DNA from: an uncultured Elusimicrobia bacterium
GTDB taxonomy: Bacteria > Elusimicrobiota > Elusimicrobia > Elusimicrobiales > UBA9959
Assembly: GCA_903879915.1 (NCBI GenBank)
Contig: CAIRNJ010000056.1
Span: 1-40,557, forward strand
Direction of reading: 5' to 3'
DNA length: 40,557 nt
Positions 36,653 through 40,557 of this stretch are shown piece after piece. Below the pieces are notes generated by a model. The model had not been told where the DNA came from, did not search any database, and was given only the letters and a program-made list of their open reading frames with translations. Each line of letters opens with the position of its first letter. Within the stretch, counting starts at the first letter, position 1. The position numbers and the translations under genes were made by a program.

Positions 36653-36712
36653 GGGGACGCTACAAGACAACTTGATCGTTTCCAATTATCGAGTTATCGT
36701 GCAGCGTCCCCC
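36653..36712. repeat. GGGGACG type-B inverted repeat
   Basis: GGGGACGCTACAAGACAACT on the left and its partial reverse complement ending AGCGTCCCC on the right; the minus-strand right arm reads GGGGACGCTGCACGATAACT then CGATAA. It lies just beyond the stop of the DUF2157-like gene (36717). Confidence 0.85.
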
Positions 36713-39679: not shown

Positions 39680-39737
39680 GGGGCGTTACACGATAACTCG
39701 ATTGTTTTAAGTTATCGAGTTATCGCGCAGCGTCCCC
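39680..39737. repeat. GGGGACG type-B inverted repeat
   Basis: Left arm GGGGCGTTACACGATAACTC and, on the minus strand, right arm GGGGACGCTGCGCGATAACT then CGATAACTT, with a short central spacer. It lies between the ndk stop (39747) and the RluA-family start (39661). Confidence 0.88.
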
Positions 39738-40383: not shown

Positions 40384-40435
40384 AATGGATTCTGCGAGGC
40401 CGGCTGCTTTTTACACCCCGATAATCATATAGAGG

Positions 40436-40501
40436 GTCCCCTCCCGCAGTTTGTAACATTGCTTTGTCTAAGAAGCAGTTGCAAACAGCTAAGGAGGGGA
40501 C
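40436..40501 (+). ncRNA. Structured 5' leader hairpin of the IS110-type transposase
   Basis: Three nested stems: GTCCCCTCC (40436-40444) with GGAGGGGAC (40493-40501), perfect 9 bp; GTTTGTAAC (40449-40457) with GTTGCAAAC (40478-40486), one G-U pair; TGCTT (40460-40464) with AAGCA (40473-40477) around an 8-base loop. The 3' arm contains the transposase ribosome site. In IS110-family elements a non-coding bridge RNA can be made from the end flanking the gene, so this may be part of one; that is inference. Confidence 0.6.
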
Positions 40502-40505
40502 TTAT

Positions 40506-40557
40506 ATGAAATTATACGCGGCAATTGACCTGCATGCAAACAATAGCGTGCTGGTAG
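40506..40557 (+). CDS. IS110-family transposase, N-terminal fragment cut by the window edge
   Basis: Only 17 codons are visible: MKLYAAIDLHANNSVLV, then the window ends. This matches the N-terminus of IS110-family DEDD transposases, with the first catalytic Asp at position 8 (AAIDLH). The ribosome site AAGGAGGGG lies about seven bases before the ATG but inside a hairpin stem. The rest of the element, its end and its target-site junctions lie to the right, outside the window. Confidence 0.8.
   Translation, partial: MKLYAAIDLHANNSVLV

What the first reader, a model, noticed from the sequence alone, without database searches (positions are those of the whole stretch)
40436..40557. IS110-type element with a long leader hairpin burying its ribosome site
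The transposase start is preceded by three nested stems totalling about 23 bp. The outer perfect 9-bp stem includes GGAGGGG, so translation from read-through RNA should be blocked, as in some other insertion sequences. The region may also be part of an IS110 bridge RNA, which chooses target and donor DNA.
Basis: partly seen in the sequence, partly recalled or inferred. Interest (0 to 1): 0.55.

Follow-up and report, generated by a model that had tools for sequence, protein, structure and literature searches.

The report
Hairpin hiding a jumping gene's start
The window ends inside a common kind of RNA-guided mobile element whose left end folds, as RNA, into a hairpin that hides the ribosome-binding site of its recombinase gene; the same hairpin, with different letters that still pair, occurs in relatives from many bacterial phyla, so it is probably a built-in brake on the recombinase rather than part of the guide RNA.

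Summary
Confirmed: 40436-40501 folds into a strong hairpin (9+2+9+6 bp; z -6.85) whose outer stem holds the Shine-Dalgarno (SD) site of an ORF starting at 40506. The ORF is the start of an IS110-family, IS1111-group recombinase. The contig breaks inside this multicopy element; the closest named relatives are Elusimicrobia.

The element's left end lies about 18 bp upstream of the hairpin. In relatives the guide (bridge/seek) RNA lies downstream of the gene: there 12 of 26 elements match their own right flank over at least 7 bases, in the leader 0 of 26.

The hairpin recurs across phyla with different but complementary letters: outside GGAG, 76% of own pairs form against 40% with swapped arms. 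Joining the ends in silico gives a near-consensus promoter whose predicted start lies at the foot of the hairpin in 21 of 29 elements, so the hairpin should sit at the 5' end of circle-made mRNA as well as in read-through RNA.

Best reading: a translational brake conserved in IS1111-group elements. ISPpu9, another IS110-family element, is an experimental precedent, so this is a new variant of a known kind. Function is inferred.

The parts
40418..40557 (+). left part of an IS1111-group IS110-family element; the contig ends inside it
   Evidence: shared by 6 places in the own genome with different left flanks; complete copies in relatives
40420..40425 (+). GATAAT, predicted -10 box of the circle-junction promoter (its -35 would come from the right end, not in the window)
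   Evidence: joined ends of 29 relatives give TTGACA-like, spacing 15-18, GATAAT in 23 of 29; prediction
40429..40438 (+). left subterminal inverted repeat; the run matched by the right end is 9 bases (TAGAGGGTC) in the close relatives L069 and L070
   Evidence: right ends of five own-genome copies read GACCCTCTA
40436..40501 (+). leader hairpin of 9, 2, 9 and 6 bp
40436..40444 (+). 5' arm of the outer stem (GTCCCCTCC)
40493..40501 (+). 3' arm of the outer stem (GGAGGGGAC), contains the Shine-Dalgarno site
40506..40557 (+). start of the recombinase (transposase) ORF, first 17 codons
   Evidence: full-length relatives carry PF01548 and PF02371 and fit NF033542

Best explanation
The feature is the left end of an IS1111-group IS110-family insertion sequence. 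Its roughly 88-nt leader forms a hairpin whose outer stem pairs the recombinase gene's Shine-Dalgarno site with a stretch at and just inside the left inverted repeat, keeping recombinase synthesis low. Shown here by sequence and computation: the hairpin, its pairing conserved between clades, its place next to the junction-promoter box and the start codon, and a guide RNA at the other end. Inferred: that it lowers translation; that circle-made mRNA begins at the foot of the hairpin; that read-through RNA is blocked more tightly because the AUG is also paired. How the brake is released (rare breathing, an antisense RNA as in ISPpu9, or the recombinase) is unknown.
For: Strong fold. Across 67 non-redundant leaders the own-arm duplex averages -19.8 against -12.8 kcal/mol for swapped arms; 54 of 67 beat their swapped mean. 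Positions outside GGAG pair in 187 of 246 own cells against 3699 of 9203 swapped cells; all five pair in 16 of 53 against 16 of 2069. GGAG is below 0.2 unpaired in 17 of 20 leaders against 13% of 100 GGAG sites inside ORFs. The inner stems are structured too (43 of 53 below z -1.64). The foot of the hairpin lies within -4..+3 of the predicted junction start in 21 of 29 elements. Precedent: the ISPpu9 5'-UTR fold lowers tnp translation, and weakening it raised a reporter 26-fold (PMC8450116).
Against: No expression data of any kind. 13 of 67 leaders are no better than their swapped mean (four of these, L100, L104, L106 and L116, have a shorter hairpin that my 5' window cut off). A plain alignment of 16 close leaders shows compensatory change in only 1 of 10 predicted pairs. 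Over all leaders the antisense strand folds slightly better. Several Verrucomicrobia leaders keep a stem without a good SD, which hiding an SD alone would not explain. The loci in one clade are not independent.
Confidence: 0.72

Rival explanations
1. The hairpin is part of the element's bridge/seek RNA and helps choose target or donor DNA.
For: In the IS110 group proper the bridge RNA is in the left end (PMC11208160, passages read).
Against: The leader has no excess match to either flank (0 of 26 with at least 7 bases), while the 130 nt after the stop codon match the right flank in 12 of 26, mostly starting at the first flank base. The layout is that of the IS1111 group, whose guide RNA is usually downstream (PMC11187229).
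Confidence: 0.04
2. The 3' arm is a third copy of the inverted repeat, a DNA site for the recombinase (autoregulation or end recognition), and the RNA hairpin is a by-product.
For: The 5' arm overlaps the left inverted repeat, and in L073 and some others the right-end repeat reaches into it.
Against: Inner stems outside the repeat are structured as well. In the close relatives L069 and L070 only 3 of the 9 outer-stem bases lie in the matched repeat. A published ISEc11 mini-element moved with 50 bp of left end (passage), though I have not seen the ISEc11 leader.
Confidence: 0.12
3. The functional molecule is an antisense RNA over the leader, as Asr9 in ISPpu9, and the hairpin is selected on that strand.
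For: Slightly better antisense folding overall (mean z -4.26 against -3.68; G-U 200 and A-C 13 on antisense, 102 and 41 on sense). A TATAAT read on the minus strand at codons 2-4 in most Elusimicrobia copies, with TTA at Leu3 in 19 of 20 against 5.9% of other Leu codons.
Against: The window's own leader is more stable on the sense strand (-40.3 against -33.0). No strand bias in the inner region (p 0.47). TTA-TAC may only reflect AT-rich gene starts.
Confidence: 0.08
4. The hairpin mainly protects the 5' end of a long recombinase-plus-guide transcript from decay, and the low translation is secondary.
For: The predicted junction transcript starts at the foot of the hairpin in 21 of 29 elements. 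Stabilisation by 5'-terminal hairpins is recalled knowledge, from no call.
Against: Start sites are predicted, not mapped. A stem merely for stability need not cover the SD, yet it does in 53 of the 54 leaders with GGAG.
Confidence: 0.1

Closest known systems
ISPpu9 of Pseudomonas putida (IS110/IS492 type; PMC8450116, abstract, Introduction, two Results sections and Discussion read)
   Same: IS110-family element whose tnp leader folds over the ribosome-binding site and lowers translation; small RNA downstream of tnp
   Different: leader of 244 nt from a mapped start and an experimentally shown antisense activator; here about 88 nt of left end, the hairpin overlaps a subterminal inverted repeat and begins at the predicted junction start, antisense RNA unproven
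IS1111-group elements such as ISEc11 (PMC11187229, abstract, one section and passages read)
   Same: recombinase of about 339 aa, subterminal inverted repeats, guide RNA in the right end, circle-junction promoter
   Different: no leader hairpin is mentioned in what I read (the word 'hairpin' has 0 occurrences in that paper)
IS10, IS50 and IS200 (antisense or Hfq control named in the PMC8450116 Discussion; leader hairpins recalled)
   Same: transposase translation kept low at the RNA level
   Different: unrelated transposases; in IS10 (recalled) the native transcript escapes the hairpin, here it is predicted to carry it

Membership tests
IS110 family, IS1111 group | DEDD recombinase with PF01548 and PF02371, 330-350 aa | tested here: met
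   two full-length relatives scanned, 339 aa in the 11 aligned; the window itself holds only 17 codons
IS110 family, IS1111 group | subterminal inverted repeats | tested here: met
   matched runs of 9-13 bases in 10 of 29 and 5-8 in 14 of 29; 2-4 in 5 divergent elements
IS110 family, IS1111 group | long noncoding region downstream of the gene with a guide RNA matching the flanks | tested here: met
   right flank matched by the downstream region in 12 of 26; this copy's own right end is not assembled
IS110 family, IS1111 group | promoter formed when the ends join in a circle | tested here: inconclusive
   sequence predicts it; no circle or transcript observed
IS110-group bridge RNA in the left end | leader loops complementary to target or flank | tested here: not met
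   0 of 26
ISPpu9-type leader control | leader fold covering the ribosome-binding site | tested here: met
   (computed)
ISPpu9-type leader control | fold shown to lower translation; antisense RNA that opens it | not testable with these tools
   needs reporters and RNA mapping; only a weak antisense -10 hint

The most novel reading that the evidence does not exclude
IS1111-group RNA-guided recombinases across many phyla carry a previously undescribed 5'-terminal regulatory RNA. It begins at the circle-junction transcription start, hides the SD, and is released by a specific signal, such as an antisense RNA or the recombinase itself recognising an RNA copy of its inverted repeat, so that recombinase dose is coupled to excision.
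Probability: 0.22. Interest if true: 0.62.

Novelty: new variant of a known kind. Interest (0 to 1): 0.42.

Why it matters
IS110/IS1111 recombinases are being developed as RNA-guided DNA-insertion tools, but I found only one element in which control of the recombinase gene by its leader had been tested (ISPpu9). A leader hairpin whose pairing is conserved across phyla gives one testable hypothesis for the whole group, and separates a second structured RNA from the guide RNA at the opposite end.

Tried and rejected
Bridge-RNA reading of the leader: rejected by the flank-match test. Third-inverted-repeat reading: weakened by the structured inner stems. Strand test to separate sense RNA, antisense RNA and DNA: mixed, so no claim is built on it. 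Covariation from one MAFFT alignment: weak; the lineages differ by a one-base register shift and the clade is too similar, so I relied on own-versus-swapped arms. A first search for inverted repeats by local alignment was noisy and was replaced by a motif-anchored one. A first accessibility script used a badly placed SD window and was replaced. Rfam: no family hit in the window; the one hit is an unrelated DUF3800-V RNA in L081. No tRNA in the window.

Distant leaders, judged by eye: hairpin visible in Alteromonas, Pseudoalteromonas, Rhodococcus, Sphingobium, Pseudosulfitobacter, two Paraburkholderia and the own-genome IS110 copy L009 (8 of 16). Not seen in Haloarcula, ISGdi15, Bradyrhizobium, ISMch4 and ISEc21 (5 of 16). 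Unclear in Rhizobium, Peribacillus and Vibrio (3 of 16). L156 looked mis-started and was left out.

Rows dropped: of 80 loci plus the window, 77 leaders were usable (L085, L111, L126, L148 dropped: no start codon found or start off the locus), and 67 were kept after removing leaders at least 92% alike or under 70 nt. Of 30 elements with both ends, L075 was dropped for a coordinate error, leaving 29. In some searches three near-identical rows (L070, L089, L090) were also dropped; one search added the window. Known slip: the window's own leader was cut one base too far right; one search repeats the window's values correctly (duplex -30.8 instead of -31.6; same fold energy).

Full report
What is in the window. 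Positions 40436-40501 fold into a hairpin of 9, 2, 9 and 6 bp; the 122-nt stretch given has -51.8 kcal/mol, z -6.85, and 0 of 200 shuffles as good. GGAGG (40493-40497) lies in the 3' arm of the outer stem and the ATG is at 40506. The window is a whole contig of a draft genome (3.37 Mb, 112 contigs) and its right end is a break at a repeat: six places in this genome carry the same left end, each cut by a contig end. The six flanks differ and the shared sequence starts at about CCGATAATC, 40418.

What element it is. A search of 199 genomes (relatives, the own genome included) found the left end in 20, and complete copies were fetched. They encode a 339-aa recombinase (11 aligned) with PF01548 and PF02371, fitting the IS110 model NF033542, in the two scanned. 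A scan of genome contigs with this alignment returned 80 loci in Elusimicrobia, Gamma- and Betaproteobacteria, Nitrospira, Acidobacteria, Verrucomicrobia and others; the closest records are Elusimicrobia. The layout is that of the IS1111 group: short left end, long right noncoding end and subterminal inverted repeats, as described in PMC11187229 (abstract, section 'IS1111 and IS110 family features' and found passages read).

Where the guide RNA is. Within 130 nt after the stop codon, 12 of 26 elements contain at least 7 bases complementary to their own right flank (own mean 6.27, other elements' flanks 4.69, p 0.00027). The leader shows no excess for either flank or strand (0 of 26 with at least 7). 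The matches of 7 or more bases sit at +24..+29 after the stop and begin at the first flank base. The left flank alone gives no excess (p 0.46); with four element bases added, own 6.48 against 4.71. The bridge/seek RNA is therefore downstream, and the leader hairpin is a separate thing.

The hairpin is conserved by pairing, not by letters. Of 80 loci plus the window, 77 leaders were usable and 67 kept as non-redundant. The duplex between a leader's own 5' and 3' windows averages -19.8 kcal/mol, against -12.8 when the 5' window comes from an unlike leader; 54 of 67 beat their swapped mean and 42 of 67 are in the best 5%. 54 of 67 have GGAG at -20..-7, and in 53 of these it is paired to the 5' arm in the lowest-energy fold. 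Five positions outside GGAG, where the SD imposes nothing, pair in 187 of 246 own cells and 3699 of 9203 swapped cells; all five pair in 16 of 53 against 16 of 2069. Examples: GTCCCCTCC/GGAGGGGAC (window), GGCACCTCCT/AGGAGGTGCC (L103), TGACACCTCC/GGAGGTGTCA (L107), GGCGGCCTCC/GGAGGCCGCC (L137). The part inside the SD stem is also structured (median z -2.85; 43 of 53 below -1.64). Against this, a plain alignment of 16 Elusimicrobia-type leaders shows compensatory change in only 1 of 10 predicted pairs, and 13 of 67 leaders are no better than swapped; four of those have a shorter hairpin that my 5' window cut off.

Promoter and transcript. Every one of the 29 complete right ends carries a TTGACA-like box. 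Most elements share a pyrimidine-G pair at both ends, so I joined the ends on one copy of it (an assumption). The junction then has a -35 box matching at least 5 of 6 in 28 of 29, spacing 15-18, and GATAAT in 23 of 29; some of the 29 are near-identical copies. A junction promoter of this kind is published for ISEc11 (stated in PMC11187229; the original paper is not held). With a start 7 nt after the -10 box, the outermost pair of the hairpin lies within -4..+3 in 21 of 29. Hence native and read-through RNA should both carry it: GGAG is below 0.2 unpaired in 17 of 20 for both, against 13% of 100 internal GGAG sites. The AUG is more open in the native form in 20-21 of 27, depending on the start assumed (p 0.002-0.003). 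For the window the AUG goes from 0.003 to 0.87 unpaired, but in the lowest-energy read-through fold it pairs with flank sequence, so that value depends on the insertion site.

Function. By analogy with ISPpu9, where the 5'-UTR fold lowers tnp translation, weakening it raised a reporter 26-fold, and an antisense RNA is proposed to open it (PMC8450116: abstract, Introduction, two Results sections and Discussion read), the likely role here is a translational brake. That step is inference. An antisense promoter is only hinted at: TTA at Leu3 in 19 of 20 Elusimicrobia-type copies, against 5.9% of their other Leu codons, which AT-rich gene starts would also explain.

Strand test. Over 67 leaders the antisense strand folds slightly better (mean z -4.26 against -3.68). 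The inner region shows no bias, and the window itself favours sense. I do not build on this.

Reach. Leaders of more distant IS110-family elements were looked at one by one. The hairpin is clear in several with recombinase identity near 30%, and in the host's other IS110 copy (L009); it is absent in an archaeal copy, ISGdi15, ISMch4 and others.

Novelty. Searches for a described leader hairpin in IS1111 or IS110 elements (open-licence papers only) gave ISPpu9 as the one relevant case among the listings; other hits were seen as listings only, except passages of PMC11208160. Key older IS1111 papers (for example the ISEc11 promoter paper) are not held. So: a new variant of a known kind, with function untested.

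Noticed in passing
L157-L161, right flanks of the own-genome copies; motif places: The element sits just upstream of a repeated promoter-like motif (TTTGNCGGGTTNNNNTGCTATNCT; 24 sites in the own genome with up to 3 mismatches, 0 for the reversed pattern); five of the sites carry the element's right end.
   Followed up: partly
left flanks of the copies: window 40388-40417, L002, L003, L005, L041: Several left flanks are T-rich tails, in L041 a clear intrinsic terminator, so the element seems to land between a terminator and a promoter.
   Followed up: no
window 36695-36711 and 39721-39737: Two of seven genome places with a GGGGACGCTG..CGATA arm of a dispersed palindrome; 0 for the reversed pattern.
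   Followed up: partly
L009 (G000:C52:31500-35500): Another, intact IS110-family element (370-aa frame) in the same genome, with its own leader hairpin and end repeats.
   Followed up: partly
A1 alignment columns 257-264: Where IS1111 recombinases are said to carry SG or TG, this clade appears to read SNG (RWSNGKKKG); position judged by eye, no reference aligned.
   Followed up: no
codons 2-4 of the recombinase ORF, window 40509-40517, minus strand: Perfect TATAAT on the antisense strand; TTA at Leu3 in 19 of 20 Elusimicrobia-type copies.
   Followed up: partly
L051 (G156:C71:6800-14500): Two copies of a related element in the same direction about 3 kb apart, both with a shortened recombinase frame.
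   Followed up: no
L081:3588-3684, minus strand: DUF3800-V RNA (Rfam RF02964) downstream of a relative's right end.
   Followed up: no
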